Origin: Corynespora cassiicola
Taxonomy: Eukaryota; Ascomycota; Dothideomycetes; Pleosporales; Corynesporascaceae
Length of the DNA stretch: 64,000 nt
Direction of reading: 5' to 3'
NCBI GenBank assembly: GCA_022059125.1
Contig: JAEUWY010000007.1
Coordinates: 226,768 to 290,767, forward strand
The notes beneath the pieces are model-generated. The model had not been told where the DNA came from, ran no database searches, and saw nothing but the letters and a program-made list of their open reading frames with translations. A program made the translations under genes and the position numbers. Positions 13,860 to 58,189 of this stretch are shown here, piece by piece. How positions within the stretch are numbered: the stretch's first letter is position 1; the number at the start of each line of letters is the position of its first letter.

Positions 13860-13908
13860 TTAAGAGTGGGCGGAACCAGGAGGTGGGCGGAACCCTTGTA
13901 GCCGAGCT
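13860..13908 (-). repeat. Right terminal inverted repeat, copy 1
   Basis: 49 bp whose reverse complement begins AGCTCGGCTACAAGGGTTCC. It matches the left end with a few differences and is followed by the TA duplication. Confidence 0.9.
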
Positions 13909-13910
13909 TA

Positions 13911-23644: not shown

Positions 23645-24312
23645 GCTCTATGTGGAAATTAGTGTCCTGTGGGTTTTTTAAAATGTCAAAATAATGTTCA
23701 GTAGCTAGGCTGGGATAATTGAGAACGTTTTGTATCCGGAAGAGGGGACCAAGCTCTTGAGAAGGGCTTGTAACGCTTGATATACATACGGCAATAGTCT
23801 ATCGGAAGGATTGCGACGAAGTTGAGACATACATTCCCTTGCATGAATGACTTTTGCATTTCAAATTAAACCGATTAGCTTACGCATGGTCAGCTATCGA
23901 CGTTGTAATGGGGCGTATGCGTCGCATAGAATTCGCCTGCTTGTTCGCTTTTAACCGACGTCATTAGGGCGCAGTATCATCACCGCGCTTCCACCATCCC
24001 TCTAAATTCGCTTAATAAGCTGATTTCAAAGTATATGCCTATTAAAGAACTATTATGTTCGTTATTAATGCTTGAACTAAGGCTACATTTTTTTTAACTT
24101 AATGAGCATTAGCAAGGGGTACCGTATACAGAATATGGAGGCATTACAAAACGAAAGCCTATAAGCCACTACCCGGCTTAAAAACTCGACATGCGAGACT
24201 AATATTAGATTAACAAATTATGTCTACTCAAATTAGTATTTTTAGGTAATCTTATTTTCAAGTGGTAGAGCCAAACGTTAGGATATTTTCTGTGCCTCAA
24301 ACAAAACAATAG
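23645..24312. other. Intergenic region
   Basis: 668 bp with no supported gene; it becomes AT-rich towards the transposon. Confidence 0.45.
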
Positions 24313-26103
24313 TAAGCTCGGCTACAGGGGTTCCGCCCACCCCCTGGTTCCGCCTACTTTTAAAAAAATAAACTACTCTATAAAAATACGTATATTGCTA
24401 CTAAGCTTTTTAATTAAAATATATAGACTTAAAAGCTTCTGTAGCAGCTATTTTAGTATTTTTAAAAATTTTTTTTTTTTTATATAATTATTTTAGTAAG
24501 CTAGCTAAGTCTGCTAAGTTACTAATTAGCTTATTATAGCTTTTATATTTTTAATATTTATAAATTATTAATTAAAGTTTATATAAATTTAATAATAAAA
24601 GCTTTAAAACCTAAACGCAGCTAGCTAGTTTTTTAATTTTTAATTTTTAGTTTTAAAACTTATAGCTTTTATATTAGCTTTTAAAATTTTTTTACTAGCT
24701 TTATAAAATAACAGCTAAATTTTATAACTAAGTTTTTTATTTATTTAAAATTTTTATTAAATTTAGTAAAAGTTTTAAAACTTTTAAAAAGTAGCTATAA
24801 AACTTTTTATTAGTAATATAGCTTTTTTTTAAACTAATAAAGTAGCTAGCTAAATTATTATTTAAAAAAACTTTAGTACGTAATTAATATTAAATAGTAA
24901 TAAACTAACTATTTTTTAGTTAGTTTAAATTATACGTTTAATAAAGCTTTACTTTTTAGTTTAGCTATAGTAAGTAATAAAGCGTTTTTTTTTAATAAAA
25001 GCTGTATTATTAATTATAGCTAAAACTAAAATAGTTTAATAATATTTTAATTTAATAATAGAAAATTTAGTAAAATTAAAAAGCTAACGAAAATATATAG
25101 TATATAAAAGTAAAAAAAAAAAAAAATTTAATTCTGTTTATATAATTAAAAAAAATTTAAACTAATATAGCTACTATAGCTATTTAGTATAAATATTTAA
25201 AGCTAAAGCTAGTTATAAGCTGTTTTTAATATAAATATATAGTATAGCTACTTATAGCTAATTTTATTTAATATTTATTTATTTTCTAAAATTATATAAT
25301 ACTACTAAAAAATTATTTTAGCTAAAAACTATATTATTTAAAATATTTTACTTTTAAAAATTATTATTAAACTTAACTTAGCTTTTACAGCTAAAATATA
25401 CTTAAATATAATAACTTATTTATAATTTTTTAAATTTTTAATATAAGTTTTTTTTTTTATAAGCTAGTAAAAACTTAGCTGTTTATATATACTCTAAATC
25501 CTAACTTACTTTTATTTATATTATATATATTTTTAAGCTAAATATTTAGTTTTAGTTTTATATATTTAAACAGCTTTAAAAAAATTTATATCTAAACTAA
25601 AATAGCAGCTTTAGTTTTTAAAATTTTAAACTTTCTACTTACTATTAAAACTATTTTTAAATTATAATTAATAAAATAAAAAATTTAGCACTTACTAATA
25701 AAAATTTAATTACTATTTATATAAAAAATTTAAATAGCTATTTTATAAATTTAAATATATAAAAAAAAATAGCTATAAGTTTTTTTTTTAAAAATTTATT
25801 TTATAAAAAATTTTTTTTACTAAAAGCTTAGCTGTTATTAGTATTAGTTACTAATAGTTTTACGTATTTAGCTTTTTATATAACTTTATAGTATTAATTA
25901 AAAAAAACTATATATTTTAACAGCTGCTTACTAGCTATTATAATAACTTATATTAAAATTAATAATAGCACTTTATATAGCTAGTTCTCTAGTATTTATT
26001 ATAGATAGCTAGTATTAAAAGTAATTAAAGTTAACGCGGAGAGGTAAGTTTGTTAAAGATGGGCGGAACTAGGGGGTGGGCGGAACCCTTGTAGCCGAGC
26101 TTA
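24313..26103. mobile_element. Fot1/Pot2-like DNA transposon, copy 2 (no nested insert)
   Basis: TA duplications lie at 24313-24314 and 26102-26103, and the element is 24315-26101 (1,787 bp). Inverted ends: 24315 onward reads AGCTCGGCTACAGGGGTTCC, and the reverse complement of the right end reads AGCTCGGCTACAAGGGTTCC. The left ~650 bp and right ~1.14 kb align with the two arms of copy 1, in the same orientation. At the position of the retroelement in copy 1 this copy reads TTTAGCTATAG without interruption, so it is the empty site. The interior is RIP-like, with no readable transposase. It ends about 170 bp upstream of the next gene. Confidence 0.88.
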
Positions 26104-26270
26104 GTTGAATTCCTCGCTCCTATGACAAGCGAGTTGTTTTCTCACTATGGAGCTCGCCCATGACGTAATGAGGGTAATGATTAACCGAGGTTCCCAACAT
26201 CGCCTTGGCTCGCGCGGGGTTTCCACCAGATACCACCAAACGGACAATCCGCCGATCTGTATGTTCAGAG

Positions 26271-27842
26271 ATGCCCTCTAGTCAACTTGAGTGCGACGTT
26301 CTTGTTGTTGGTAGCGGCAATGCAGGCTATTGTGCCGCCATCTCCGCGGCAGAAAATGGCGCCAAAGAAGTACTGATAATCGACAAATGCCCTGTGGAGT
26401 GGGCTGGTGGAAATACCTACTTTACGGCAGGCGCTTATCGAACGACTCACAATGGCCTCAGTGAACTGATGCCTCTGGTCAACAATGTGTCCGATGAAGC
26501 CGCCTCGAAAATCGATCTCGCGCCTTATACCTCTTCGAATTTCATGGACGACCTTGATCGTGTATGTCTCGGGCGGTCCGATCCACAGTTGAGTAGCGCA
26601 TTAGTAGGAGACTCAAATGCGATTATTCGCTGGCTTGCTGGTAACGGTGTCCGGTTTCAATTATCATTCAACCGCCAGGCGTACAAGGTCAATGGTCGCT
26701 ACCAATTTTGGGGAGGGCTGCATCTAAAGACCGAGGATGGAGGCAAAGGACTCATTTCAGACCTTCGGGCTGCAGCTTCGCGATATGGAGTGCGCGAAAT
26801 TTTCTCAACGGCGCTTGTCGGCATTTCCCTCTCCGCAAAGGGAGACAAAGCTCATGCAACCGTACAGAATGCTGATTCCCACGGCCCCCATTCCATTGTA
26901 GCTGGCGCGCTTGTGCTTGCTGCTGGCGGTTTTGAGTCGAATCCACGTATGCGCTGCCAGTACCTAGGGCCTGGATGGGATATGGCAATGGTTCGAGGCA
27001 CACCTTTCAATACTGGTGAAGTTTTGGACATTGCGCACCGCGATCTCAACGCGAAGTCTGCAGGCAATTGGTCTGGATGTCACTCAGTAGCCTGGGACGC
27101 AAACGCAAATCCTAACATGGGCGATCGCTCAGTTTCCAATGAAAACACAAAGTCTGGATACCCTTTGGGACTAATGATCAATGGTCTCGGACATCGCTTT
27201 GTTGACGAAGGCTTGGATATGCGCAATTACACTTACGCCAAATTTGGACGAAAAATCCTGGAGCAACCGAACCACATCGCATTCCAGGTATGGGATGCGC
27301 AGACTTCCGGCTGGCTACGAGATGAAGAATACAGAGCAGAAAGGACCGAACGTATTGTAGCGGATACACTAGAAGAGCTAGCCGAATGCTGTTTTGCACA
27401 CGGCCTTGAGAACCGCGATTCGTTTCTTCAAACGATCAGAGAGTACAACGAGGCTGTATATGCTAGGCGACGAGAAGATGCGTCTCTCGAATGGAACCCT
27501 GCAGTCAAAGATGGCCTCTCAACTCAATCATATACCAAGCGGTTGCATGTCCCTAAATCGAACTGGGCATTACCTATTGATCAAGGGCCCTTCATGGCAG
27601 TAAAGGTCACCTGTGGTGTGACATTTACGTTCGGCGGATTAGCCACGAATCCAAATAACGCGCAGTTAATTAGCGAAACAACAGGTAAAGAGATACCCCG
27701 TGTCTTTTGCGCAGGTGAGATGTTAGGCGGGTTATTCTATCAAAATTACCCCGGGGGTAGCGGACTAACATCTGGGGCGGTTTTTGGACGTAGAGCTGGA
27801 GCCAGTGCCGCTCGCACTGCCATAGGGATTGAACATGGCTAA
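26271..27842 (+). CDS. FAD-dependent dehydrogenase, fumarate-reductase / tricarballylate-dehydrogenase (TcuA-like) family
   Basis: Single exon, 523 aa from the ATG at 26271 (MPSSQLECDVLVVGSGNAG); the upstream in-frame start is only TTG. The N-terminal Rossmann motif VVGSGNAGYCAAISAAENG binds FAD. WAGGNTYFTAGAYR, the VLAAGGFESNPRM segment, and the C-terminal GEMLGGLFYQNYPGGSGLTSGAVFG are characteristic of the FAD_binding_2 / fumarate reductase flavoprotein family. It probably oxidises or reduces a small carboxylate or an enone-type substrate. Its promoter abuts transposon copy 2, whose right end is about 170 bp upstream. It sits next to the multicopper oxidase pair and could belong to that cluster, but no direct link is visible. 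Confidence 0.85.
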   Translation: MPSSQLECDVLVVGSGNAGYCAAISAAENGAKEVLIIDKCPVEWAGGNTYFTAGAYRTTHNGLSELMPLVNNVSDEAASKIDLAPYTSSNFMDDLDRVCLGRSDPQLSSALVGDSNAIIRWLAGNGVRFQLSFNRQAYKVNGRYQFWGGLHLKTEDGGKGLISDLRAAASRYGVREIFSTALVGISLSAKGDKAHATVQNADSHGPHSIVAGALVLAAGGFESNPRMRCQYLGPGWDMAMVRGTPFNTGEVLDIAHRDLNAKSAGNWSGCHSVAWDANANPNMGDRSVSNENTKSGYPLGLMINGLGHRFVDEGLDMRNYTYAKFGRKILEQPNHIAFQVWDAQTSGWLRDEEYRAERTERIVADTLEELAECCFAHGLENRDSFLQTIREYNEAVYARRREDASLEWNPAVKDGLSTQSYTKRLHVPKSNWALPIDQGPFMAVKVTCGVTFTFGGLATNPNNAQLISETTGKEIPRVFCAGEMLGGLFYQNYPGGSGLTSGAVFGRRAGASAARTAIGIEHG

Positions 27843-28124: not shown

Positions 28125-30252
28125 TTAATCTAGCGGTCCATACCGAAGTGGAGGCACAAACTCCGAATGTGTGAGGTGTTTGATGTAATCAGGTGCTGGA
28201 GGCATGACATCGCCACCCTCAATCAGAACAATCTGTTGACCTCCCTGCGCCAAATCTTAGTCACTGAAAGATAAGTGGAGGAGAAGAAACCTACAGCAAA
28301 ATGTGCAATTCGGTGGCAATGAAGCATGCTCATTGCAGGAAACGTGATTGTGTAGCGTATTACGGTCCATGACCCAGGACCTGCGGCCAGTCTTGCACCA
28401 TCGCGAAGAGGCGGGTCGATCATGTTGAAATTCTCAGGTGATTCCTTCAGTGCAGTTGCAACATCGTGCCACTTGAAGTAACCTGTTCCATGCCCAATAA
28501 TGAAAGCTTTGTGATTATGCTGCTACAGTTAGTCTCGAATTTGGTCTTGCGAAATAGGAGCTTACTTTATGAAATGGATGCATTGCATATGCTCCATTCT
28601 CGTAAATCAGGTCGACAACAGAGCCATTCTTGAGACCCGAAAATGTGGTTGGTCCGTGCGATTCCTTGTTCCAGAGAATAGGTGGCATCTGCTGTCTGAA
28701 ACCTTGGTGTGGCTCCGACGCCAAGACCCAGGTGCTAGGACCAGTCATGTTGGCCAGGAACCGCAAAGTTATGTCTGAAGCGGCTGGAGGACTGCGAGAC
28801 GGGAAAGGTGCCAGATCGGTCATCTCGTCCATCGTTACACCTTCAGAGACCAAGTCTCCGAAAATATTGATGTGAGGCTTGCTGTCTGGAGCTTTCATCA
28901 CACCATGCTCATCTCGTCTTTCGGGTTGGCCTGGGTAGCGAAGAATACTTAATCCTTGAATAATTTGCTCCGGTGCCAATGAAGAAAGGCGAATTGCATA
29001 ATCTCCAGGTTGTTGATTCAAGGGAACGATGACACTGATGCGGTCACCCATGTTCAGATTGAAGGCCTACGCACAGTTAGTCTAGAAAGATTATTGATAA
29101 AGCTACTAGTACATACTTGAACTTTCTTTGGTACTACAAAGTCACCATCGGCCGCGACAAGCCACATATCATGTTCATCAATGGCGATGCGCAGCTCGTG
29201 ATGAGCACCAGGATGGATGAAATTTAGGAACAGATACCTCTGTCCTTCCTTTGCTTCGATAACCTCAAAATCTGTATATGTATTCTTGCAGGTCCTCTGG
29301 TTCATGAATTCAACTCCTCGTTTAGGAATAAGGCATGCGAGTGAGTCTCTCGGACCGTGTTCATCGTGTTGGTTGATGAAGTCGGGATCGAGACACGTGA
29401 TTCTGCCCCTTCCATTTGTGACCAGAGATGCAGCGCATGAAGGCGTGATGCCGGCGTCGCGATACATAACGGTCAATATTTCCATACCTTCGTAGTTCCA
29501 GTCGCTGACCATAAGATGGTGAGGCTGCGATTCGGCATCGAGCATTGCTTGTACATCGTGCTCTGAAGAAGAAATCTGTTCATATGGACGCGGTCGAGAT
29601 GCCTTCGGGCGAATCCAGAGCGGACCTCTCTGGCCCTAATGTGATTGGTTGTTAGTAAATCGAAGATTATAGATCTCACCGAGGCTTTTACACTTACATC
29701 TGCAAATGCGGGTCCGAAATGGCCGTGATAGAAGTAAATCCCCGTTTGATTCGTGAGGGTGAATTCGTAGGTATATTTGTTCCTTGGCTCAATGGGCCAT
29801 TGCGTAACTCCAGGGACCTACGACTGTCAGTATCAATGGAGCACAGGTATTTGGCGACCCACTTACACCATCATTCCAATACTTATCTACCTGGAAAACA
29901 CCATGACTACACCTGTCAGTCAAGCATTCCATCGACGTGCAACGAGCAACGTACTAATGCATTGTTGCCTCTATGAACATGTTGTTGGTAACGGTGATTC
30001 GGAGAGTATCGCCCTCTTCACCTTCAATAACTGGGCCTGGTGTTTGGCCATTAATCGTAAGGACTGGTCGCGAGTTTCCATCTGAGTTGTACTGGTTATT
30101 GTTTTGACCTAACCAAGTCCGGAACATGGACGATGAGACCTACCTAGAGAGATCCATTTCGCCTCTAGAGTAAGATTATACTCTCTGAGTTGCGCAGAAA
30201 ATACTGAACCAACGGCAGAGAGAGTAGTGACAAAACGCAAAATCCGCATCAT
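28125..30252 (-). CDS. Secreted multicopper oxidase (laccase-like), canonical copper sites
   Basis: Complement of join 28125..28244, 28295..28519, 28566..29066, 29117..29635, 29698..29817, 29867..29906, 29955..30108, 30144..30252 (595 aa). Signal peptide MMRILRFVTTLSAVGSVFSA. Three cupredoxin domains carry all copper motifs: HYHG (motif 1, Tyr in place of the common Trp), FYHGHFG (motif 2), HPFHKHNH (motif 3) and MLHCHRIAHFAGG (motif 4, with the type-1 Cys and His). It should oxidise phenolic or similar substrates with O2 outside the cell. The first intron is only 35 nt, unusually short; other junctions are standard. It is transcribed away from a paralogue that has lost these ligands. Axial residue and substrate cannot be judged by eye. 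Confidence 0.9.
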
Positions 30253-30890
30253 GAGGACAAATCCAACCAACTTCGGTGCAATATTCAGATAAGAGAGTAG
30301 ATACCCGTCTTCGGTCACAAGAGGGGTCTACTTCAAGGAGTGCGTGTAAGAATGGATGATGTCACGTAAAAAACTGCCGAGTTGTGACCTTCAGGAGTCA
30401 TTTGTAAGGAGCAATCAATATCGCGGACAAAAGTGAGGCGCTTCCACAGATTCAGTGTTCTGGCCAAGACCTTGGGCAGCGTTCTTGAGCGGCCGACAGT
30501 AGCACCGACGGGACTACTTCCACCGCCACTAGCGTAATCTGTTTCTGGATATCTCCGTGTATCATCAGGGCAGATCTCGGTTCTTTGTTGATGAATTGTG
30601 GCATGATTCCTAAACGCGAATGTTCTGGATGAGCGGGATACCGGGGTTTGAAGGCATACTCGGCCCGGCTAATAACTGATTCAAGCTACCAGTGAAAGTT
30701 AATGTCCGCAAGCTGATCCAACTTCCGGTTTCAGGCCATCGACTGGCTTGGTTTCTCTTGGGGGTTGCGACGAAGAGCAGGCCCGCTATCTTTACACTCG
30801 GTCGAAGGCGATCCAATACCCCCAACATTGAATCTTCTCTGCTCAATTTTATCTTCCCTACTTGAAATCGTTTCAAAATATTTTTTGAAC
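30253..30890. promoter_or_regulatory. Bidirectional promoter region of the multicopper oxidase pair
   Basis: 638 bp between two divergent starts, so the two oxidases are probably co-regulated. No known operator could be assigned. Confidence 0.5.
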
Positions 30891-33059
30891 ATGGAGCGAA
30901 AGAAAAAAGAGGAAGTACTCTTACAAAAGAGATCTAGCTCATTCCAAGCTATTTTCTCAAATTCTTTTTTGTTCCTTTTGTTAATACCTCTCCTTTTGAT
31001 TACCGCCAAATTATCTAGCCCGATATTGCTACATGGAACAGGTAGAGAAAAACCTGTGGTTTTTGGCACATCCAACACCGCACAGTCTCGTATTCCCTCT
31101 ACAGTTCACTACAATCTGACAGTGAGTCAAGCATGGAGAAATCCAGGTAGGCATTCGGCATTGATTCTGGCCTGTTGTATCCAGACTGATCTTCTCTTCA
31201 GATGGAGGCTACTGGAGACCTATCTTCGTCGGAAACTCCGAATCACCTTTCCCAACTATCAACGTGAACGAAGGAGATGAATTGAAAATTCATATTCATA
31301 ATGATCTAGGTCTTCCATTATCGCTACATTGGTACGAATATGTTTCCCCAAGTGATACCCTTACTCAACAATTATAGGGTTGGCGTACACCACAGCAACA
31401 GCATGGTGTGGCATGACGGCAGCTCCGGGGTGACATTTCGCCCCATGTTACCCCGCTCCAACTTTACCGCCGTAATCGACACTACAGATCAGTGGGGATT
31501 GAAGTGGTATCTGGACCACACATCGACTCCGTCGGTTGATGGCAATTATGGAACCATATGGATTCGCCCTCGCGCTGATCGGGACCGACCTTACCATCTT
31601 GTCTCAAGAGAAAGTCATGATATCCAGGACATGATTGATGCTGAAGGGACTCCCGAGCATGTCGTCATGTACAATTATCAGCATCGCGAAATGCCTGGGC
31701 TGTTGGCACAACTGCAGGGCGAGGGCTATGACCCTTACTGCTTCCAGTCAGTCCTCATCAACGGTCAGTTTTATCGAGCACCTTCGTCTAGATTTCGAAC
31801 CTGACAAATCATTAGGAAAGGGACGGGTTCACTGCAAGCCAAAGGATCTATTCCAAATCAAAGGAAACGCTGTGGATTCTCATGGCTGCGTACTGCAGGC
31901 TTCAGGGGCCGTCGGATATCCGGAGTGCAGGCCGTCTGATGCTGATTACGAGGTAACTACACGCACCCGGTTTAAGCCAGGTCACTAATGTAATCAGATT
32001 ATCAACACGAACAATCGCCGTTGGATTCTGATGAATTTCGTCAATCCAGGCTTGGAACACCCATGGCGTGTGTCGATTGATCACCATGATATGTGGATTG
32101 TGGCCAACGACGGTGGATTTATTCATCCCCAGAAAGTAAATGTACGAAAATTCACCGCGGATCTCACTTTGCGTGGCTGACATATGTCGAAGGCACTCAC
32201 TGTTCTGAACGCAGAACGAGTGACAGTCATGATCAAACTCGACCAGAACCCAGACGACTATGCGATCCGCTTTCACGCATTAAGTGATCTCCAGTCGCTC
32301 CAGGGATATGCCATTCTTCGCTATCCGCACAGAAGAACGCGCCAACCCTTGGGTGTTCCCATGCCTCGGCCGGACCAAGACTCCTCGTCTATAGAATTGG
32401 ATGGAACGCCCCGGGCCGGCAACATCCTCGAAGATAAGATGATTGCGCACCCTTTTCCCGAACAGAAACCGGACCAAAACGCCAACATCACCCTGCGGTT
32501 CAAGGCCACTGGCGCCCCTGACCCTTACAATCCCTACATTACGAACTGCTCTCTCAACGGCGTTCCTTGGTCAATATTCCGTGCACTTATGGACCCCTTA
32601 ATTGTGGATCCCAAGAAAGACCTGGACCCGCTCAACCCCTCGGTAAAAAATCTTCCCCTCGGAAGCGTGGTGGACATCATCGTCGAGAACGACCTCCCAG
32701 TATCTCTGCCCATGTACAAGCACAACGATCCTACCTTCTTGCTGGGCCGGGGAAACACCAAATTCGAATGGAATGACGTCGCAGAGGCGAAACTAAAACA
32801 TCCAGATTCCATCAACTTGGAAAATCCTCCCGTTGGCTACTTGCATGAGCTTCCGGCGGGCGGCTGGATGGCGCTGCGCTGGAAGATTACGCAGCCTGCC
32901 ATGACCATGTTTCACGTGTTCAGGGTGCGCTATTTTGTGCTTGGTATGCAGGTACCGCTCTTCGAGGGGGATGATGCCTGGCCGGAGATACCGGACTGGG
33001 TAGGTAAGCGCCCGCACGTCGATTTTGAGATTCCGGGTCATGGTGGAATTTTCGATTAG
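30891..33059 (+). CDS. Multicopper-oxidase-like protein lacking copper ligands (pseudo-oxidase)
   Basis: Join 30891..31146, 31202..31331, 31378..31763, 31816..31952, 31998..32141, 32193..33059 (639 aa); every junction keeps frame and there is no internal stop. It starts with a basic patch and a hydrophobic segment (FLFLLLIPLLLITAKL), a signal anchor or uncleaved signal. Its length and landmarks (VDGNYGTIWIRP, DHHDMWIVANDGG, DDYAIRF) parallel the divergent paralogue. The metal motifs do not: HxHG is HWVG, HxH is LDH, HPxHxH is LPMYKH, and HCHxxxH is HVFRVRY. The type-1 site has lost both His and the Cys, and six of ten His are gone overall. A laccase reaction is therefore very unlikely. A scaffold, partner or substrate-binding role is inferred. 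Confidence 0.88.
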
Positions 33060-33583: not shown

Positions 33584-36500
33584 ATGGATCAAGAGACGAT
33601 GGCGCGACGTAAAGATTTTCTCATAGCTTCGGTGGCACGTAGAGTGTGCAACATAACCAACAATTTGGACATTGAACCAAGGGTCGAATTGCTTTACAAA
33701 ATGTCATGTCCTAATGCTGAGCAAGCCCACCCGGCGGTGAAGGAGGCCAGAGCCATTGTCTCACAGTATCCAATCCTTAATCCTACGGGATGTTCGGCTC
33801 AATTTTGTGAAGGTGGCCGAATGATCCACTCGAGTGAACCACGCGTTGGAGAAAATAAACACCTATCTGTTGTTCGCGCAGAGGCCGTCGATTTTCTCTC
33901 ACAACTGCATCGGGATGGAGTGATTCCATCAAAGAATAGTCTTGAGAAAAGGAAAGTGGAAGTAATTGGTGAGATAGAGACGAGATCGGCCACGGCACTT
34001 ATTAGATCTCTCCAGGGAGGTAAAAGTGTTGGTTGTGTGGGCGGAGCTTGGTCCCAGAATCGAGAGGAGCTTGAACATGGAATTCGTCTAGCCTGGAAAC
34101 ACTCCAGAAGATGCATCATGCGCTCCCAGTATGAGGATCTCAGGTATGTATGTCAAACTTTGACCATGTTGCATCTGACATCGCAAGGTTATGTGATCTC
34201 AGGAATATCCGAGGCAGTGAGCAAATGGGCTCGATTCTCGTCAGTGAACTTCAAAAAGCCTTCAACAATGGAGACATACTTCCTACAGGTTCGATCAGCC
34301 ATGGTTTCTATATAATGCAGGATGCTAATGGAGAAGCAGTATTTATTTTCCCTCCCCGAGAGATAGATAAGGTTGGCCCAATGATATGGAACAATCAACT
34401 ACTATCCTTTGCCGGAGTAGGTTGCACAGTCCCACACATGACAAGACGCTAAGGATCGCAGTACATGCAGGAGGATGGGTCCATTCTAGGTGACCCACTC
34501 AACGTACACCTCACTAAAGCGATCATCGAACTAGGATGGCGCCCCCCACCCTTCAGAACAAGATGGGATACGCTTCCGTTGGTGACGATGGCGGAAGGGG
34601 AAGATCCTGTTATTACCGAGTTACCCAAGGATATGTTCCCATTGGTTGAGATATCGCATCCACAGCACACACTGGCTTTCGATAAACTTGGGCTGAAATG
34701 GGTTCCAGCTCCGGCTCTTAGTCGAATGGGCTTCGACATAGGTGGTGTTCAGTATACAGCAACACCATTTATCGGTTGGTTTATGGATGCTGAGATCGGG
34801 GTTCGCAACCTGGCGGACCGTGAAAGGTACAATGTGTTACCATCACTCATCAAAGCACTCGGGTGGATAGACTCTGTCGAACAATTGGACGAGATTAATG
34901 AAGCTGATAGGCTACGTCTCCTGGTAAGCGAAAAAAATAAGAGCTCCTACCAGCCAGGATGAAGATAACACTTTTCTCAGTCCAACGCTCAATCGGAATT
35001 GAACTACGCTGTGCACTTTTCATTCCAACAAGCAAACATCCGGATGACAGATACCCTAACGGCTTCAGCAATGTACTGCAACTACGACGATGAACACCTC
35101 CGAAAACATGGGTTCCGCCTGCCAGCTGACCCTTATTGGCTTGCTCCGCCTCAAGGATCCATTGTCCCTTTATGGCACCGCGGCGGATCTCCAAATTACC
35201 AGCCTAAGCCTCTTATAGCTCGCCATCTGCAAGACCCGGTCAAAGTATGGAGGCGCAAGACAAAACAACAAGAAGAACTGAACTCTTTGACATACCCAGC
35301 CCGCCGATCTAACTGGCCTGCTACTAGGGAAAACCTGAGCCATGTGCGAATCGGCTATTGCAGCTCAGGGACAACAGCAGTGAAATTAGCGCGGAAAGCC
35401 GAGGCATATCTATTGCGACTGAACAAAATTTCAGTACAATACCATATCTCTTCTCCCCAACCCCTCAACACACTTTCTCCGGATACTTTGCAAAGCGGCG
35501 ATGTCGTGTTGCTGATCGCCAGCTCCTCAGGACATGGTGAGATCCCAGTCAATGGGAAGGATTTCGAAAATGCTTTGTCAAGATCCGAGTTACCCTCAGG
35601 ACTTGAATGGGCAATCTTTGGAAACGGAAACTCATCCTATTCAGACTCGTTCAACGGAGCTGCCAAGAAACTTCGCAACATCCTCCTCCGACGGGGCGCC
35701 AGCTTCCTATTACCTGACTTCTTCTACGGAGACACTTTGATCGAGGACCCGCCGTTTCGACAGCTTAATACATGGCTTTTCGCTGTCTCCATGCGACTTT
35801 TCAATTCTGCCGGGGAGGAAGCCACGGACTTGGGCTCTGGATCTCAGTCCACGCCTGGTTACAATATCTTCCAGGCCTTCTCACCCGCAAATGTCTCGTC
35901 TTGCACGGTCATTTCTTCAAACCACCGACGTCTGTTCATAGATGTTGAAAACTCAAACCCTTCCTGTTTTTCCCATGCACAGTTTTTGATTCCCAACTCC
36001 CACAAAACAACCCAAGAAATTTTGTCTATCATTGGATTGACAGGAAAAGAGTTACTAAGCCAAGAGTCGCCACGCCTCTGCCTGTACGATATTCTTTCCC
36101 ATTTCGTGGACGTCGATCGCCCGTTCAAACATATCCAATGGATCCATACGATCAAACTCAACAATGAGGAAGAAGATGCATTACTGCGGCAACCTCTCCT
36201 TCAGTCGTTGAAAATTCTCAAAAAGCGCCGAAAGATCAGGCCTAATTCCTCCGCCTTTTTCTCCGCTCTCCCGCTTGGTCGCCCACGTCACTTTTCCCTT
36301 GCATCGGCCATCGAAGTTAACAAAAATACATCACGTCTTGAATTCATTGTCAAGACTCATACGAAAGGAAAATTCAGCTCCGAATTCCTGTCAATTGCTG
36401 AGATCGGCGCATCTCTTCGAGTCAGACTTTCTGGCCAGTCTACTATGTCGATGATTGAGAATTTCTCGAAGCCGATCATTGCATTTGCCACAGGCTCCGG

Positions 36501-36921
36501 CATCGCACCAGTCAAATATATACTGCAACAAAGACTGAAGATTTCGCAAGAATCGCCTAGTTCTTTGAGACAAAACTTGGAACCTGGACCCATCAGCTTG
36601 TTCGTAGGGTTTCGCGGTGAGGATGCCCAAATGGTCTCTGATGCGCTCCACGACGGGATTAAGTCCAACATGATTGATATCCTCTCTCTTACACCGAGTA
36701 ACGATAAGAAGTGGCGGGCCCAGGATTGTGTCTTTAATCCTGGGTTTAAGAGCACGATTGAGCGCAAGGTTAAGAAAGAAGAATGTTTTGTATTTGTATG
36801 CGCATCCTCACAAGCTGCGAACGAATTTTCGAGCAACCTTAATGCTATAATAGGGGTGGATGTACAGAAGGAATTAGGCGATAGATATTTAGAGGAGGTA
36901 TTTGAAGTTGCGCAGCTATAG
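33584..36921 (+). CDS. Nitric oxide synthase, oxygenase plus reductase
   Basis: Join 33584..34143, 34188..34416, 34462..34923, 34981..36921 (1,063 aa). It should convert L-Arg to citrulline and NO with NADPH. The oxygenase half has the haem-thiolate segment LAWKHSRRCIMR (Cys ligand and stacking Trp kept), QEDGSILGDPLNV, the substrate-Glu block GVQYTATPFIGWFMDAEIG with VRNLADRERYN, and LNYAVHFSFQQANIRMTD. The reductase half has a flavodoxin domain (IGYCSSGTTAVKLARKAE, FGNGNSSYSDSF), the FAD motif RHFSLAS and the nucleotide motif FATGSGIAPVKYIL. The NADPH phosphate-binding region (LSLTPSNDKKWRAQD) is degenerate. The linker between halves is short. All three introns restore family sequence exactly. 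It ends 90 bp from the convergent MFS gene. Such fungal enzymes are known but patchily distributed; its role here is inferred. Confidence 0.92.
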
Positions 36922-37011: not shown

Positions 37012-38789
37012 TCACTCTGGGGCCTTCTTCCCTATGAGTCCCCCATTTCGCAGTCCAAAGAAGCTCAAAGGAACAATAACCACACAGCCAGCAAATATTG
37101 TCCAAAACGCGGCCCTGAAACCGACCATGAGCCAGGCCTCGCGTGTGGTGACACCCGATTGCTCCGAAACAGATCTGGCGATAACGGCGATAACGGCCAG
37201 GCCGACCGAGTTACCAAACTGCCCAATCTCGCTGAAGACCCCACCAGCAAGCGATTGAAGGTCCGCCGGGAACGCGTCGGAGATTACGAGGTTCGAAATA
37301 GTAAACAGCGCTATCCGCATGTCAGCACAACAAGATGGGACATACTGTTCGGGGCACACGGACCGTCGGGATTGACGGGCGAAAGCACGAGAGCCCAGAA
37401 GGGTGCAAACCAATAGTTTGAGTCGATGGGCATCGTAGCCATCAAAGCAGGAGATGCCGCCGTCACTACGGCGGATATGACGGCGATCTTCTGGATGTGG
37501 ACTCGAGAGACGAGGTAGCCCGTCAGCACGTTGATGAAGACGCCTGAGCACACATGCGGGATGAACCTCAGTGAGCTCTCGAGCGCTGAAGTCCTCTCGA
37601 CCTGTTGGAAGCTGCGCGGGTTCTGTCAGAGGTGCTAGGGCAGTTGGGGGCTGGGTTCTGAGCATGCTTACTACAGTGTAGTCAAGTATTGGATGCAATT
37701 CATGGCAGCCCAGCTAAGGAAAACGCAAACACAAATGGATGAGAAGACAGCATTGCGCCACAGTCTGTTTGGGATAAGTGCCGGTCGATTTCTTCGCGTC
37801 TGATGTCTCATCCACAAGGGGAATAGAAGAATGAAGATAAAAGACAGCAGGAGCAACACGATGGCTTGAGGGTCCTGGATGCTCAGGCTGGAAGTTATTG
37901 CAGCCAAGATGTAAAGTAGAAGACCCAGACCAGCGCTTATGATAATTGCACCAATCCAGTCGATATCCCGAGTAAGGCGACGCATGCGGGAATCGGAGTG
38001 GTGGGCGTGCTGAATATCCGGCAGTAGCCACACAGCTGAAGTCGATATCAGGAAGTTGATTATAGCCGTAATGTAATAAGCCCATCTCCAGCCGATCGTG
38101 TCAGTGAAGACACCACCAAGCACAAGGCCTAGCGCGAAACCTAGGGGGGATCCAATGCCAACAATAGCGAAAGCGATATTGCGCCAGGTTCCCTTGGGAA
38201 AGGTATTTGTGATGAGACTCACGGTGGTTGGGAGACTCATGGCGATAGAGGCACCCTGAAATGTGCGGAACATGACGATTTGAATGCCAGAGCGAGAGAA
38301 GCCGACCGCCAAGGTGAAGACGATATACAGGTAGGTACCGGTGAGCCACATGAGTTTGGTGCCTATGATGTCGGCGACGGCGCCAAATATCAATAGTAAA
38401 CATCCTGCAGCGAGGTTGTAGACGGCGACAGGCCACAGAATCAGTGCTTCAGAAAGGTTGACGTCAAGGGCCACGCGGGGAAGAGCAGCTACAAGAATAC
38501 CGGTGCCAAAGGTGTTTATCACATATAAACTTGCTAGTATAGCGATGATGGAAACTCTTCGCGCCTTTGAAAGATTTCCGGCAGCTGTTGTGGAGTTTTC
38601 AGCGGTCAATTCCCCGGCCTCCACGTCGTCACTTGGCCCAGGTGCCTCTTTTCGTTGCTTTTCATCGGTCCACACTAGCTTTTGATCCAATTTACTGCCA
38701 GTCTCCGTGCATGAAGCCAAAATAGATGTATCCACAGCATCTACGGATGACAATTTGGCCGTGGTATCTGTGACAGAACCTGGCGTCAT
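37012..38789 (-). CDS. MFS exporter, DHA2-type drug:H+ antiporter (14 TM)
   Basis: Complement of join 37012..37310, 37364..37611, 37672..38789 (554 aa). A polar N-terminal tail of about 80 residues is followed by membrane segments. Family motifs include LPRVALDVNLSEALILWPVAVY, GAVADIIGTKLMWLTGT (motif A region), FRTFQGASIAMSLPT and GSPLGFALGLVLGGVFTDTIGW (motif C). The C-terminal half starts at FFQ-type sequence and includes LFTISNLVISDAFPADLQSL and GLAVIAVIARS. Both introns are canonical and restore frame. It lies tail to tail with the NO synthase and head to tail with the precursor gene. It probably exports the cluster product or gives self-protection. Confidence 0.9.
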
Positions 38790-39290
38790 AGCACCAGAAG
38801 AGGGCGTTTCTTTAACAAATGTAATGATGTGGATTGAATAACAACATGTACTGTTCTTGTGTAAGGTAGCTGTATGTGAAAAAATATATCGGATGAATGT
38901 GGATGCAGTATTAATATCCAGCGGTAATCATACTATATTTTATCCGCAGTGACGGTGTGATGGGATGCTGCTACTGCGGCGTGGGTCTTGGCGATGCGTT
39001 ACCCTAGAGAAAACTAGATAAAACTCGCATAAGCCCCAAGGGCACAGCACGCACATCACCCCGAATACTAGGGCCTTTTGGGTCGCATCTCCGTAAAGGG
39101 CGGTCTTCAACCATTCTTTTGGATTTGTTCATATTAGAAGCGGTTTTAGACAGATGACAGCGCACGAATTATTCTGGCAAATCAAAGACTGTTTAGTACT
39201 ACCTCTATCCCGATCCGAGATGGGGCTTCACAATTTCTTTTCTTTCGCTCAATTCTGCATAACTAAAAGCTAACACATGTTGCCTTCGCT
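38790..39290. promoter_or_regulatory. Region between precursor 3' end and MFS start
   Basis: 501 bp that should contain the MFS promoter and the precursor 3' UTR. No gene is seen. Confidence 0.35.
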
Positions 39291-39658
39291 TCAATTGTTT
39301 CCCCCCTTGGCATGCCAAAGGTTCCCAACAATCTCATCAGAGTCGCTTCTCTTGTCATCATCCTTTGCATGCCAGAGGTTTCCAACAACCTCATCCGAGT
39401 CGCTCCGCTTGCTGTCTTCCTTTGCATGCCAGAGGTTTCCAACGACCTCGTCAGAATCGCTCCGCTTGCTGTCTTCCTTTGCATGCCAGAGGTTCCCAAC
39501 CAGATTGTCAGAATCTTGGAGGGTTCCTATTTCGCCTTTTTAGATTTGAACTAGAGTTCAAGATCATGATCTTTTATGAGGCAGATGCACTTACTCTCCA
39601 CCAGTGGTGCGGCCAGAGCACCTACTGCCACGCCAAGGATGACCAACGAGAGTTTCAT
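39291..39658 (-). CDS. RiPP precursor peptide with four Kex2-delimited repeats (dikaritin-like)
   Basis: Complement of join 39291..39535, 39595..39658 (102 aa). Exon 1 is a signal peptide (MKLSLVILGVAVGALAAPLVE). A 59-nt GTAAGT...AAG intron leads to four repeats with unit SDSDEVVGNLWHAKEDSKR. The first repeat is a variant starting EIGTLQDSDNL, and the last ends WHAKGGNN without a dibasic site. Lys-Arg pairs separate the units, as in Kex2-processed ustiloxin/phomopsin-type precursors. Between units the codons vary at third positions while the peptide stays nearly identical, evidence that this frame is selected. The invariant VGNLWHAK has Trp and His as likely modification sites. A UstYa oxidase lies 1.16 kb upstream on the other strand. 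Main alternative: a secreted pheromone-like or effector repeat peptide. Confidence 0.85.
39308..39536. repeat. 57-bp tandem repeat, four copies (coding)
   Basis: Four 57-bp units, each with the GCATGCCAGAGGTT-type landmark on the plus strand. They encode the 19-residue repeats of the precursor on the minus strand. The outer two units are most diverged and the middle two nearly identical, as expected from unequal exchange. Confidence 0.9.
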
Positions 39659-40815: not shown

Positions 40816-41882
40816 ATGAATTTAGATTTCTCACATCAAGGTCTGAAAAATGACATGGCCAGCGAGGAAGCTCCATTTCTCTCAGATGACGAGAAGAGAT
40901 CGGAAATATCAGTAGAAGGGATCCGAGGTTCACCGTCTCCAGCTCGAAGGCACCTAACCAACCTCGTGAACGCCCTTCTCCTTGTGCTCCTCGTTGTCTC
41001 AAATGGTGCTTGGTGGGCCGCGTTCCACAGTAGGGAGGCACAGGAAGCAAGCTCGTCTTGTGTGCGGCCCCAGCTCGTATGGTGTAAGATGATTCATGGA
41101 CGGGTATCGGCCCGCTGTTTGGAGAGACGGGAGCACTGACGTTGGTGTAGCACCGGGCACTATAGCGATTGAATACGAGAGGGTAGTCCTGAATAGGTCC
41201 ATCGAGTCGGAGAATGTATTTGCTGGAAAGCGCACCAAAGCGATGGATGAAGCGTGGGCTGAACTCGTCAAGCGTATGTACTTGTTCATCTTTTCCTTGG
41301 CGAAGTTGTCACTACTTTCGTTCATCAACTGCACCATTACTTACTTTTTTGCATAGCAATGGCACTGAAGATATCAAAGGAAGAGCTTGAGCAATTAGGA
41401 GAGACGTCCATCTCATTCAGAGATGGATCAGGCTACCTGGCTGAAATGGGCGTGTTCCATGAGCTCCATTGCGTGGTACGTACCTGGCGCTGAGGGCATG
41501 ACCATGTCACAACAGGACCTCTTACCTTGAAATAGAAGCACCTTCATGAGCACTTGAGTTTGGATTTCCGTAACATGACGGAGGACGAGCTGGACTTTGA
41601 AAGGGCTCACGTAGGTATGTTGGTTCCATGAAAAGAGTCTTGGCGGGGTGTACAGAAAACGACAGACTGACCGACGGACCAGACCACTGCTTGGAGTATT
41701 TGCGCGAGGCGGCGATGTGCAGGGGCGACCCCACACTAGCCTTCTTCACATGGGACGATGGGATTCCAAAGTCAAAGAGGGATACGACGAACGAGTGTGT
41801 GAAGTGGGACAAATTGCGTGCGTTTGCCGAGTCGCGCATGGTCGATGTGTCGGATTACAGCGTCTTGAACCGGGACGGATGA
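40816..41882 (+). CDS. UstYa-family (DUF3328) oxidase
   Basis: Join 40816..41083, 41151..41273, 41357..41475, 41536..41614, 41683..41882 (262 aa). UstYa proteins are membrane-anchored metal-dependent oxidases that cyclise or crosslink dikaritin RiPP cores and modify some other fungal peptides. A cytoplasmic tail is followed by one membrane segment (LVNALLLVLLVVSNGAWWAAF). Then come SPGTIAIEYERVV, the first signature FHELHCV-KHLHEH, and the second DHCLEYLREAAMCRGD, which together give the conserved HxxHC and HCxxxLR motifs. The conserved ending TWDDGIPKSKRDTTNECVKWDKL is present. All four introns restore family sequence. Its position next to a Kex2-repeat precursor is the classic dikaritin arrangement. 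Only one copy is found in the window, whereas ustiloxin-type loci often have two. Confidence 0.92.
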
Positions 41883-41924
41883 AGGCGACGCTGATGATTG
41901 GGTCTTCGAGCGCAGGAAAACTCA

Positions 41925-42005
41925 GGTATTCGGTCGTCAAACCTAGATGTTCGGTCGTCAAATCAAGATATTCGGTCGTCCAACCTAGATATTCGGTCAT
42001 CAAAA
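41925..42005 (+). repeat. 21-bp minisatellite, about four copies
   Basis: Successive units of the form TATTCGGTCGTCAAACCTAGA, 42 bp after the UstYa stop. Noncoding as far as I can see. Confidence 0.8.
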
Positions 42006-42282
42006 CCAAAAAAGGACATGTCTACAGCCATGAGCATAACCAATGGAAAAAAAGGGAAGAGAATCAAAATGCTCTCCTCAGTAAATCGGCAGGGCTGGTT
42101 GCGATTGGTGTCTCGTATTCAACCTGATGACTGGTTTCTAGCTCTATTTTTAAAGACATGTGGCCGGGCAGACGATTAGTGGCCAATGTCTTGTGTGATA
42201 ATGTACAATGTCCATATATCTGGACGAGTGATGTGTGAAGGCCGAGATTGGGGGTTTGCAGACCGCCCTCGATCGTCTGTTC

Positions 42283-43514
42283 TCAACACTTGGTCTGATT
42301 CTTGGGGTGAACTTCATGCAGGATGAGCTTCTTGTAGCCTTCGACTGCACTCTCGAGTTCTCCGACGGTGATGGACTCGTCGGCAGTGTGGGCCCTCAGT
42401 ATGTCCCCGGGCCCGTAGAGATATCGCGTGTGGTTGCCCTGCAGCCTCGGAATGTCGGTACCGTAGGACATGACGTCCGTCTCAAAACCTGGTAAGCAGT
42501 CAGCACCATGGCATTGCAGTCGAGCAGTCAGCGGAGGGGCGTACCATCGACGTTGCAGTTGGTATCGACGACACCAAAGCCAAAGGGGCAAACGAGGGTG
42601 AAGGCGTCGGGGTCAACGCTGGTCAGGAGTTCCTGGAGCCGGTCTCTCACGATGATGTGGCCGTTTTCCTGGGGCCCCAGGGCGACTCGAATGGCCAGCG
42701 ATGCGTTTGCTGCGTCGGGGATGACATTGGCGGCGACGCCGCCGGCCATGACGCCCACGTTGACCGTGGTGTTGCCATAGACGTCGCTGCTGCCGAGGTC
42801 GGCGTCGATGGCCCTCACGAGGGCACGCATGAGCACTTCGTTGGCGCTCTTCCCAGACGCAGGATAGCCACTGTGGCCGGACAGGCCCTTTGCGAAGACA
42901 TTGCAGGCCATGCCTCCCTTGTGGCCACAGGCCAAGGTGCTGTTGGTGGGCTCGCCGAAGATGGCGACGCTCGGGCGGGTGCTGCGGTTGGTCATGACGT
43001 CGGAGAAATGGATCATGCCATCGCCATTGGACTCCTCGCCGACGACGAAGGCGAGCATGACATCGTCGCCGGTGATGGCGCCGGCGGCCACGAGCTCTAG
43101 CACGGCCAGGGTCTGGGCGGCCACGGAGCCCTTTGCGTCCGAGGTGCCGCGGCCAGCGATGACAGTGTCGGCGGTTGGCGGGTCAGGCCCGGAGCGCGAG
43201 TAGGGGAAGAAGGGCGGGACGACGTCGATGTGGGTCGTGACGACAATGCGCGACCGGTTGGAGGCGCGCGGGCCGGGCCAGGCGAGGACGTTGAACCGAT
43301 CGGACTCGGGCAAGAATTGGCGCTCCGTGGCCAGGCCATGCTCGGCGAGGTAGTCAATCAGAAAGTCGCCGACGGCGGCCTCGGCCCCGGATATGGAGGG
43401 GATGTCGACGATGGACTGGTGCAGCGACAGGAGCTGGTCGCGGTATGGGGGGGCACTCTGGGCGCTTACGGCGAGGCCACACAGGAGCAGCGCGGGGGGG
43501 ACTGCCTGCTTCAT
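42283..43514 (-). CDS. Secreted M20-family metallopeptidase
   Basis: Complement of join 42283..42488, 42545..43514 (391 aa). Signal peptide MKQAVPPALLLCGLAVSAQS after the ATG at 43514; the frame extends further upstream but without signal-like sequence. Zinc ligands and catalytic residues of M20 are present: THIDVVPP, GRGTSDAKGSVAAQ, GEESNGDG, FGEPTNS and AHTADESI after the intron. SGHSGYPASGKSANEVLM marks the dimerisation domain. It is probably an exo- or aminoacyl-peptidase acting in the secretory path or outside. Next to a Kex2-type precursor it could trim core peptides after dibasic cleavage, but that is only inferred from position; M20 peptidases are common. Confidence 0.88.
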
Positions 43515-44394
43515 GCTGGGCGAGACGACGGAACGGCGTGCTGGTACGTCTGTCGGGCCTGTCGGAGGGTGGGTAGATAAAGACTGGCTCGCGGTTCCAC
43601 GTGGGAGTATGGGACCCTGGGCCTGGTAGGAACAGAACTGGCCGGGTAATGTCGACGGTTTAAGTACACCGACGCAGCCAAGCAGCCATGCCAGCCCGGC
43701 GCCCACAAACCCTCGCCCTCATCTCCGCACACTCGCAGGCGGCGGCTGGCCAGAGGGAGTGCCATGTCGACCGCGGCCCAGCTCCCCCATCCTCCTCGTA
43801 TCGGCCCCGCGTGCTGCAGTGGCTCGGCGCGGCCAGAGCGGCACGGCACGGCACGCCACGCCACGCCGCGCCACGGGACCCTGCCGTGACCCTCGCCAAT
43901 CGACACGGGCGTGCAAATGACGGGAGTGGGAGGAGCATCGCACGAGGCCGCGAGGGGAAGGCAGATGGCCTGTCGACGCGCCGTCGGACGCCGAAGCTTC
44001 ATGCACCATCTCTTCTGGCCCGGAGCATCCTCCTCCTGGCCGAACCGAGCCCTGGCTGGCAGGCACGTACCGTACTCGCAATCTATTCTCCCAGACAGGC
44101 CATGGATGAACGCGTGGGATCCAACAACCGCCAAGCAAACCCCTACGTCTTTTGCATGCACGCTTGCCTGAAAGCAATGTGCCCAACCGAGAACCCAACC
44201 GACACGACGGCTCCGTGGGCTGGCTCCGTGGGCTGGCTCCGTGGGCTGTGCAGTTCCGGGGTGAGGCTCCTGCCAGACGGCAACCGCCCTGCCTATAACA
44301 CACGCACTGGCTGTAGCGTGCCAGACGGGCTGCTAGCTTGACTTTCAGCTGGAGGCACACACGACACTGCAGCTCCTCTGGTAGCCACTCTGCC
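43515..44394. other. GC-rich divergent intergenic region
   Basis: 880 bp between divergent starts. Long open frames on both strands come from GC-rich composition and show no family motif. Contains CACGGCACGGCACGC-type runs near 43840 and a 13-bp direct repeat (GGCTCCGTGGGCT, three copies) at about 44211-44250. Confidence 0.5.
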
Positions 44395-45965
44395 ATGGCT
44401 CCTGTCTACTTCGAGACGGGTCGACACCTCATCGCCGCCAGCATCTCTCTGGCGGCCGTGGATGTCATCGCTGTCCTGACCAAGTTCTGGGTGCGCCTGA
44501 GCCTCAAGCAGCCTCTGCTGGCTGACGACTGGCTCCTGGTGCCCGCAACCGTACGTACCCACCCTCTCTTGTTCGCGCAGACCATGGCTCGACCGCGCCG
44601 CATCGCTTGACCGTCCTGGACAACATCAGTGTCAGTCTACATTGTTCTTGACTGTCCTTGCCGACCTGAGAGGGGGTTGACAGGCTACAGGCCCTATCCA
44701 TCGGCATCGGCGCCATGCTCACATATGGCGCTTCTGAGGGCGCCCTCGGAGGTTCCATGAGCATCCCCCCCGGAGCTCCCGGTCGACTCGAACTGGAGAT
44801 GGAGCGACTGACGCTGGGAAGAAAGGTATGTCTGTCAAGCCTTGGTAGGAGGCCCTCCGTTGAGCCCCACTGACCACGAACCGCCATGTCTGGACAGATC
44901 CAATACCCCTTTCTCTTCCTGCATCCGCTGGCTATGGGCTTGGTTAGATGCAGCTTCCTCTTCCTATACCTGCGCATCTTCTCCATCAACAGGCCCCGCA
45001 AGCTCGTCACCCTGTCCATATACATCGTCGCAGCATGGACAGTGTCCTTCTTCTTCGCTGAGCTGTTCCAATGCGGCACACACTTCACCTCCAACTGGGG
45101 CTCAGTCAAAGTCTTCGCCACCCATTGCCCGGACACGCTGTGGATATTATTTGTGTACTTCCTCACCAGCGCCATCCTTGACATTTACATACTCATCCTG
45201 CCTATACCGTTTGTACGCCCCCGCCTGTGCCCCTCTTTCTCTCGTCACGCGCAAAAACTGACCGAACGTGCTTTTGTAGATTTGGAAACTGAAGTTGACC
45301 ACTACCAAAAAGATTGGCATCTTGTCCATCTTTCTTGTGGGCTCCGCGTATGTCCATGTCCCTCGGGCCCACAAAAATGGCCTGGCTCGCCGCTGACAGG
45401 TGCTGACGTTTGTGGAATAGCACGGTTGTAGCCTCTGTGCTTCGGCTTTCCTTCATGGCCCCACGTGTTTTCTCCACAAAACAGGGCCCCCCAGTGTCGT
45501 TTGAGCAAAGATCAGGTTCGTCCACTCCCATGATTCCCCGGGGCGCCTGAGAAATCAAACTGACTCGCACCCCCAACAGCCAGCCTGTCATCGACCCTGT
45601 ACTGGGGCATGATTGAACTCGGTGTAGCCATCTTCGTGGCCTGCCTCCCCACGGTCCAAAAGTTCCTCCGCTCAAAAGGCGGCAAGGGCTTCCTATCCTT
45701 CATCAGCGTCACGACCCTGTCTTCCAAGTCGAAGAGTGCCACCACGTCGTCGTCGTCACAGACCATCGGCTCCAAGGCGACCTACAAGCCACGCATCTGC
45801 GTCGACCAGACCGTCGACGTCGCATACGAGGACACGGATACAGACAGCAGGCCCATTCTCTTCGGCCTGGATTCTCGGTGGACGAAGCGTAGCAAGAAGA
45901 GCGAGGATAACGCCAGCGACATCGAGATGCAGTCGGGACGGTCAAGGTCGTCAGACCCGTGTTAA
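44395..45965 (+). CDS. Fungal rhodopsin-domain (PTH11-like) seven-helix membrane protein
   Basis: Join 44395..44550, 44691..44825, 44898..45212, 45280..45347, 45421..45515, 45580..45965 (384 aa). The first helices include FWVRLSLKQPLLADDWLL, then IGIGAMLTYGASEGALGG. FLHPLAMGLVRCSFLFLYLRIF, FQCGTHFTSNWG and ILDIYILILPIPF-IWKLKL match the conserved core. ATVVASVLRLSF and LYWGMIELGVAIFVACLPTVQKFL close the domain. A Ser-rich cytoplasmic tail follows. These proteins are putative receptors or membrane sensors in plant-associated fungi. Exon 1-2 linkage (140-nt intron) is the least certain junction. It is possibly just a neighbour of the peptide cluster. Confidence 0.85.
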
Positions 45966-46298
45966 GGCTACAAGCTTCTAGCAAAGTCAAAGAGCTAGCA
46001 GCTACTTGAATCAAATTTGAAAAATGATTGTTATCAAGTTTGAAAACGGATATGTCTATAAACATCCCACCTAGTTGCATCGGATACATCACAGTACAAG
46101 TAAAGCCGTTGAATGTCTCATTGTCAGATATCTGATAGGTCACTTGCTTCTGGAAAGATCCCACATATTTCCATTGTGTCATTTCTCGGGTACAAACCGA
46201 AAATTGTATACCCGTTCCGTCAATCGGTAAGCAAGCTTTGCCCTCGATCTTGGCCCAGCCAAGGTAAGCATTGAGTAATCATGCTGCACTTAAGTTGC
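45966..46298. other. Convergent 3' intergenic region
   Basis: 333 bp between converging stops; no gene seen. Confidence 0.4.
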
Positions 46299-57960: not shown

Positions 57961-58189
57961 CTAATATAATATTTAATAATAACTTTTTTAAGCAGCAGAA
58001 GAGAAAGCAGTTGCAGATAGTTAGACAGGTAGAACTACATATACAAACTGGCATAGAAAAGGACTGAAAAAAATGGGGTCGGCCAGATGTATATAAGGGT
58101 ATACTAAAATGCACGAACTCAACGTTATATCTTATAGTCGAGACTTGATGAAATAATCGACAAAGGCGTTGAGGTGGTTTCCACGGTTC

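What the first reader, a model, noticed from the sequence alone, without database searches (positions are those of the whole stretch)
39291..39658. New Kex2-repeat RiPP precursor with core VGNLWHAK
A two-exon minus-strand gene encodes a signal peptide plus four 19-residue repeats separated by Lys-Arg. It is easy to miss because the repeat frame lacks a Met. Between repeats, third codon positions vary (Asp GAT/GAC, Ser TCT/TCG, Arg CGG/AGA, Leu CTC/CTT) while the peptide stays almost fixed, so this frame is under purifying selection. The core has Trp and His rather than the Tyr-centred cores of ustiloxin and phomopsin, so the product would be chemically new if real.
Basis: partly seen in the sequence, partly recalled or inferred. 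Interest (0 to 1): 0.92.

Follow-up and report, generated by a model that had tools for sequence, protein, structure and literature searches.

The report
Fungal repeat-peptide precursor with UstYa neighbour
A fungus close to the leaf-spot mould Corynespora carries a small gene for a secreted protein built of four near-identical peptides, next to a gene of the copper-enzyme family that ring-closes such peptides, and the same peptide is found in three other fungal genera, so it is probably an undescribed natural product of a known class.

Summary
Window 39658-39291 (minus) encodes a 99-aa two-exon precursor: signal-peptide-like start, then four 19-residue units separated by Lys-Arg. The intron is better read as 68 nt than 59 nt. 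Homologues exist in Lentithecium fluviatile, Parastagonospora nodorum and Massariosphaeria phaeospora, each 61-62 aa with two units; all 10 units of the four proteins carry GNLWHAK. UstYa homologues (76-83% identical) occur in the same three species, in two of them on contigs of the precursor's contig length. No tyrosinase match lies on this contig. Most likely a dikaritin-type RiPP: Kex2 cuts the precursor and one UstYa oxidises or cross-links a Tyr-free Trp/His/Lys core. Product and chemistry are inferred. A nitric oxide synthase at 33.6-36.9 kb is probably no conserved partner. Kex2-repeat proteins beside UstYa genes are a known class (PMC7329392), so this is a new family of a known kind.

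The parts
39595..39658 (-). Precursor exon 1: ATG and signal-peptide-like sequence MKLSLVILGVAVGALAAPLVE
   Evidence: M1-I7, A14, L15, A17, P18 invariant in 4 species; no signal-peptide program was available
39527..39594 (-).
   Evidence: gap-free alignment to Lentithecium
39291..39526 (-). Precursor exon 2: four repeat units, TGA at 39291-39293
39477..39497 (-). Core GNLWHAK, unit 1
   Evidence: sequence
39420..39440 (-). Core GNLWHAK, unit 2
   Evidence: sequence
39363..39383 (-). Core GNLWHAK, unit 3
   Evidence: sequence
39306..39326 (-). Core GNLWHAK, unit 4
   Evidence: sequence
39462..39467 (-). Lys-Arg, predicted Kex2 site 1
   Evidence: sequence
39405..39410 (-). Lys-Arg, predicted Kex2 site 2
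   Evidence: sequence
39348..39353 (-). Lys-Arg, predicted Kex2 site 3
   Evidence: sequence
40816..41882 (+). UstYa/DUF3328 gene, 5 inferred exons (40816-41083, 41151-41273, 41357-41475, 41536-41614, 41683-41882), 262 aa, hydrophobic helix near the N-terminus, HELHC and HVDHC motifs
   Evidence: many boundary pairs are possible for the first intron, the one used gives the ungapped join of the homologues
37012..38789 (-). MFS transporter gene downstream of the precursor, possible exporter (membership of the pathway not tested); C-terminal exon structure not resolved
   Evidence: (piece 37671-38927: PF07690 E 1.9e-28; piece 37012-37713: no match)

Best explanation
The gene makes a secreted precursor that carries the same peptide four times. 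Shown from sequence: signal-peptide-like start, Lys-Arg between units, GNLWHAK in every unit of four fungi, and a UstYa gene with an intact double HxxHC motif next door whose homologues occur in the same species. Inferred: in the Golgi Kex2 cuts after Lys-Arg and a Kex1-type carboxypeptidase trims the basic residues, giving 17-18-residue acidic peptides such as SDSDEVVGNLWHAKEDS. The membrane-bound, copper-dependent UstYa, working in the secretory lumen, recognises the unit (perhaps the acidic DSDEV segment before the core) and oxidatively modifies the core, most likely by a cross-link that uses Trp and a neighbour (Leu, His or Lys). Peptidases then trim the flanks and a transporter or the secretory route exports the product.
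For: Precursor and homologues. UstYa Pfam E 1.5e-44 and HxxHC-x25-HxxHC. The six His/Cys of the motif are invariant in the 21 of 24 homologues that I aligned (P0024, P0028 and P0029 left out), and lie in helices 164-178 and 186-210 of an AlphaFold2 model of the 97% identical Corynespora protein, mean pLDDT only 65. That motif forms a binuclear copper site and is needed for activity in CctR (PMC12435403, abstract and passages). UstYa homologues in Lentithecium (83%), P. nodorum (79%) and Massariosphaeria (76%); the longest-contig lengths of precursor and UstYa agree in Lentithecium (407925) and Massariosphaeria (301046). Beside 4 of 10 other UstYa loci examined in this genome there is also a Kex2-repeat reading frame. 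One Kex2-type P-domain match exists.
Against: No transcript, peptide or product data. A UstYa could instead hydroxylate, halogenate or desaturate, all of which the family does (PMC12435403 and PMC10512285 passages). None of the listings and passages that I saw describes a UstYa product cross-linked through Trp. Contig-length identity shows linkage within 301-408 kb, not adjacency, and for P. nodorum linkage could not be checked. The recognition role of DSDEV is weak: 44 of 500 shuffles score as well for the nearest other precursor of this genome, and a unit of a different one (L031) matches about as well.
Confidence: 0.75

Rival explanations
1. A Kex2-processed linear secreted peptide (signal or pheromone-like), not modified; the UstYa gene belongs to something else.
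For: 78% of the KEPs in the survey had no DUF3328 gene nearby, and known KEP peptides outside the dikaritins are linear (PMC7329392 and PMC9769878, passages). Most of the unit, not just a short core, is conserved.
Against: Divergent UstYa start 1.16 kb away, and UstYa homologues at 76-83% in the same three other species. 0 of 227 putative alpha-mating factors and 3 of 216 putative pheromones had a DUF3328 gene nearby (PMC7329392). No XA/XP dipeptides for STE13 follow the Lys-Arg; no Pfam match.
Confidence: 0.17
2. The nitric oxide synthase beside the cluster supplies NO and the core Trp is nitrated, as in bacterial thaxtomin biosynthesis (recalled).
For: Full-length NOS model at 33584-36921, 1063 aa, Pfam NO_synthase E 5.7e-80 and flavodoxin E 1e-8; all 3 NOS matches of this genome are exons of it; the core has one invariant Trp.
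Against: Best NOS homologue is 48% identical, in Neofusicoccum. Among the 120 listed of 277 hits (7999 candidates scored) none of those that bear a name is from C. cassiicola, Lentithecium, Massariosphaeria or P. nodorum, although those species hold the UstYa. A mis-annotated gene of another length would have been missed. No nitrating P450 was looked for.
Confidence: 0.04
3. Not a gene: a tandem repeat whose frame is open by chance.
For: The repeats stay open in several frames on both strands; an antisense frame has as many synonymous changes.
Against: Homologues with the same start and units at E 1.5e-23 to 3.7e-18 in three other genera.
Confidence: 0.01

Closest known systems
Dikaritins (ustiloxin, phomopsin, asperipin-2a, victorin)
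   Same: Signal peptide, dibasic-separated repeated cores, UstYa/DUF3328 gene beside the precursor; asperipin-2a also has a single UstYa (PMC7329392, passages)
   Different: No Tyr in any of the 10 units; Trp, His and Lys instead. No tyrosinase match on this contig, 47 elsewhere in the genome, whereas cyclization of ustiloxin and phomopsin needs one. Product unknown.
KEPs as defined by Umemura 2020
   Same: Four repeats of at least 8 aa between dibasic sites after a signal-peptide-like start
   Different: The three homologues have only two units and fall below that survey's threshold of three.
Plant burpitides such as moroidin
   Same: Copper enzyme acting on a ribosomal core with Trp and His; the CctR paper likens its four-histidine arrangement to that of BURP proteins
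   Different: Different enzyme family; likeness of the core is only by composition, and the moroidin cross-links are recalled, not tested.
Ascomycete alpha-pheromone precursors
   Same: Signal peptide plus Kex2 repeats
   Different: No STE13-type dipeptides, no Pfam match, UstYa neighbour

Membership tests
Kex2-processed repeat protein (KEP, criteria of PMC7329392, section 13) | At least 3 tandem repeats of 8 aa or more between dibasic sites | tested here: met
   4 units in the window gene; not met by the 3 homologues, 2 units each
Kex2-processed repeat protein (KEP, criteria of PMC7329392, section 13) | Signal peptide | tested here: inconclusive
   Hydrophobic start (mean Kyte-Doolittle 2.6 over residues 3-16) conserved in 4 species; SignalP could not be run
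Dikaritin | KEP precursor accompanied by a UstYa homologue | tested here: met
Dikaritin | Core cyclised by the UstYa homologue | not testable with these tools
   needs expression and mass spectrometry
Ustiloxin/phomopsin type | YxIx core and tyrosinase in the cluster | tested here: not met
   no Tyr in any of the 10 units; no tyrosinase match on contig C7
UstYa/DUF3328 (neighbour gene) | Pfam UstYa match over cut-off and HxxHC(x)nHxxHC | tested here: met
   152.9 bits against a cut-off of 25; HELHC and HVDHC
Ascomycete alpha-pheromone | STE13 XA/XP dipeptides after Kex2 site | tested here: not met
   units begin SDSDE; a comparison with this genome's own pheromone gene was not made

The most novel reading that the evidence does not exclude
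One UstYa forms a Trp-centred cross-link in GNLWHAK (to Lys, His or Leu), giving a fungal counterpart of Trp-cross-linked plant burpitides and bacterial streptide, made by a lineage whose two-unit precursors escape genome mining that asks for three repeats.
Probability: 0.33. Interest if true: 0.75.

Novelty: new member of a known kind. Interest (0 to 1): 0.52.

Why it matters
A 2022 review counts only five reported dikaritins (PMC10512285, passage) against 838 predicted KEP types (PMC7329392). Here the heptapeptide GNLWHAK is identical in all units of four genera while the whole proteins are 67-80% identical. The species include plant pathogens and, as I recall, saprobes, which would argue for a general role rather than a host-specific toxin. 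It pairs a Tyr-free core with a single nearby UstYa and no nearby tyrosinase, a small case for testing what UstYa enzymes do to Trp; and its two-unit relatives show that a three-repeat threshold leaves out real families.

Tried and rejected
Third-position variation as proof of frame: rejected as sole evidence, since an antisense frame does as well. Nitric oxide synthase as a cluster member: weakened, no close homologue among named hits from species that hold the UstYa. DSDEV as recognition motif: the closest UstYa paralogue of this genome (C1:1335776-1336240, 37% over query residues 106-255) lies beside a precursor with unit GDSDEVVAYPDEKLYAEEYKR, but of its four units 0, 854, 31 and 1246 of 2000 shuffles score as well against SDSDEVVGNLWHAKEDSKR; for the whole mature part 44 of 500. 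Other precursors: L031 units 341 and 18 of 2000, L021 units 1655 and 1732, L025 unit 1183; whole mature parts 358 (L021), 155 (L025) and 487 (L031) of 500 (all). So the likeness is not specific to the closest paralogue; kept only as a lead. Solved structures: no credible sequence relative of UstYa (one chain, E 0.82). Literature: NLWHAK in no paper text held; Corynespora cassiicola with RiPP gave 20 papers, none evidently on this from listing; VGNLW and Parastagonospora absent from the main text of the 2019 secretome survey PMC6339444. MFS gene: no convincing single-intron model. The 26 UstYa exon matches were grouped by eye into 15 loci, window included; 10 of the other 14 were scanned for repeats, one of them cut short by the contig end (L021, 2512 bases); four were not fetched. 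One search listed 8 rows: 5 genes, the window's included, and 3 other-frame rows of the same arrays, which I dropped. In one search units were located by the string GNLWHAK itself; that no further, diverged unit exists was read from the sequences. Its table shows one gap letter at position -7 because an aligned row was read; the residue is Gln.

Full report
Observation. The minus strand from 39658 encodes MKLSLVILGVAVGALAAPLVERTLQDSDNLVGNLWHAKEDSKRSDSDEVVGNLWHAKEDSKRSDSDEVVGNLWHAKDDDKRSDSDEIVGNLWHAKGGNN after removal of one phase-1 intron. The repeat array is found independently with period 57 and has the highest score of 31 rows. The repeat exon has no Met.

More than chance. A protein search found 3 proteins at E <= 1 among 892 candidates: Lentithecium fluviatile (E 1.5e-23), Parastagonospora nodorum (1.8e-18), Massariosphaeria phaeospora (3.7e-18). 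Each is 61-62 aa, has the same start and two units. Over the four proteins all 10 units contain GNLWHAK and two Asp at fixed positions before it. Third-position change within the window gene (13 variable third positions, 5 first, 5 second) fits coding, but an antisense frame shows 28 synonymous pairs against 26, so it does not by itself fix the frame.

Organism. The UstYa protein is 97% identical to one of Corynespora cassiicola strain Philippines, so the window comes from that species or a close one. The contig is 290,767 bases; the window ends it in 15.5 copies of TTAGGG, and the first 1500 bases of the other end hold no TTAGGG or CCCTAA.

Neighbour gene. The genome search for the UstYa family gave 26 exon matches, two of them in the window. 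The assembled gene has five exons and 262 aa (several boundaries are possible for the first intron) and scores 152.9 bits against UstYa. An N-terminal helix, residues 42-79 of the model, is hydrophobic by eye (no membrane predictor was run). The His and Cys of both HxxHC motifs are invariant in the 21 of 24 homologues aligned. In CctR this motif forms a binuclear copper site and is needed for activity; the same paper reports that the cyclase AprY is copper- and dioxygen-dependent too (PMC12435403, abstract and passages; the AprY paper itself is not held). The AlphaFold2 model of the 97% homologue puts the two motifs in two helices, mean pLDDT 65, so it is only moderate support.

Link between the two genes. 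Starts are 1.16 kb apart and divergent. UstYa homologues occur at 83, 79 and 76% identity in the three species that hold the precursor. Longest-contig lengths for precursor and UstYa agree in Lentithecium (407925) and Massariosphaeria (301046); for P. nodorum the records carry different strain tags and contig lengths and cannot be compared. The other UstYa homologues (24 hits in all, including Periconia and Xylariales) came without a precursor homologue; either their cores differ or the small gene is not annotated.

Within-genome comparison. Scanning 10 of 14 other UstYa loci (four not fetched) and the window, I found Kex2-repeat reading frames beside 4 of the 10: units DSDEVVAYPDEKLYAEEYKR (L017), VDVSDGFKR (L021), a repeat rich in His-His and Gly (L025; no start codon or signal peptide in the frame shown), and QHEYGLDADESANEKR (L031). 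In the 64-kb window the scan gave only the gene under study. The L031 locus on contig C20 also has a tyrosinase match (C20:40814-41365) next to its UstYa, whereas none of the 47 tyrosinase matches lies on the window's contig. This fits a Tyr-free core but is one contrast only: the Tyr-containing L017 locus has no tyrosinase match nearby either. The genome has one P-domain proprotein convertase match, the expected Kex2.

Other genes near. MFS transporter 37012-38789, NOS 33584-36921, multicopper oxidase pieces 31310-33059, FAD-binding oxidoreductase 26262-27839, M20 peptidase 42528-43718. All NOS matches of the genome belong to this one gene, and its best database relative is 48% identical. I do not count it as part of the pathway. 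Whether the MFS and M20 genes belong to it was not tested.

Mechanism. Shown: precursor architecture, conservation, UstYa with intact motif, co-occurrence in species. From established knowledge: Kex2 cleavage at dibasic sites and UstYa action on dikaritin cores (PMC9769878, PMC9233826, PMC7329392, passages). Inferred: that this UstYa acts on this peptide, that Trp is a site, that the acidic segment guides it. A Lys-Trp cross-link exists in streptide (title in the reference list of PMC12186524); Trp cross-links in moroidin are recalled.

Known or new. Umemura's survey found 7878 KEPs in 838 types plus 2560 stand-alone ones, 22% near a DUF3328 gene; 65.6% of those had Tyr, 20.5% Trp (PMC7329392: abstract, passages, section 13 and part 1 of section 6 seen). 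Its criterion of at least three repeats would pass the window gene but not its homologues. NLWHAK is in no paper text searched; supplementary tables were not searchable, so the window species' gene could be listed in one. Verdict: a real, apparently undescribed family of a known kind, with a core that makes the chemistry worth testing.

Noticed in passing
33584-36921 (+): A full-length fungal nitric oxide synthase gene (four inferred exons, oxygenase plus flavodoxin domains), the only one found in this genome; best database relative 48% identical and no named hit from C. cassiicola among the 120 listed, so it may be strain- or lineage-specific in a subtelomeric region.
   Followed up: partly
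L017 2538-2954 (-); L021 349-681 (-); L025 1929-2666 (+); L031 1811-2524 (+): Four further Kex2-repeat reading frames beside UstYa genes in the same genome, with different cores.
   Followed up: partly
28515-33059: Multicopper oxidase gene next to the NOS gene (Pfam matches for 31310-31804 and 32181-33059, plus strand); frames on the minus strand at 28515-29817 look similar by eye, but the one piece tested gave no Pfam match.
   Followed up: no
42001-46000: GC rises to 58-63% over the M20 peptidase region against 47-51% in the adjoining 2-kb windows.
   Followed up: no
6001-14000, 24001-26000, 56001-58000, 60001-64000: Blocks of 17-22% GC, as repeat-induced point mutation would leave (not tested), up to the telomere at 63908-64000.
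   Followed up: no
41918-42008: Tandem repeat of 21 nt, 4.3 copies, just downstream of the UstYa stop codon.
   Followed up: no
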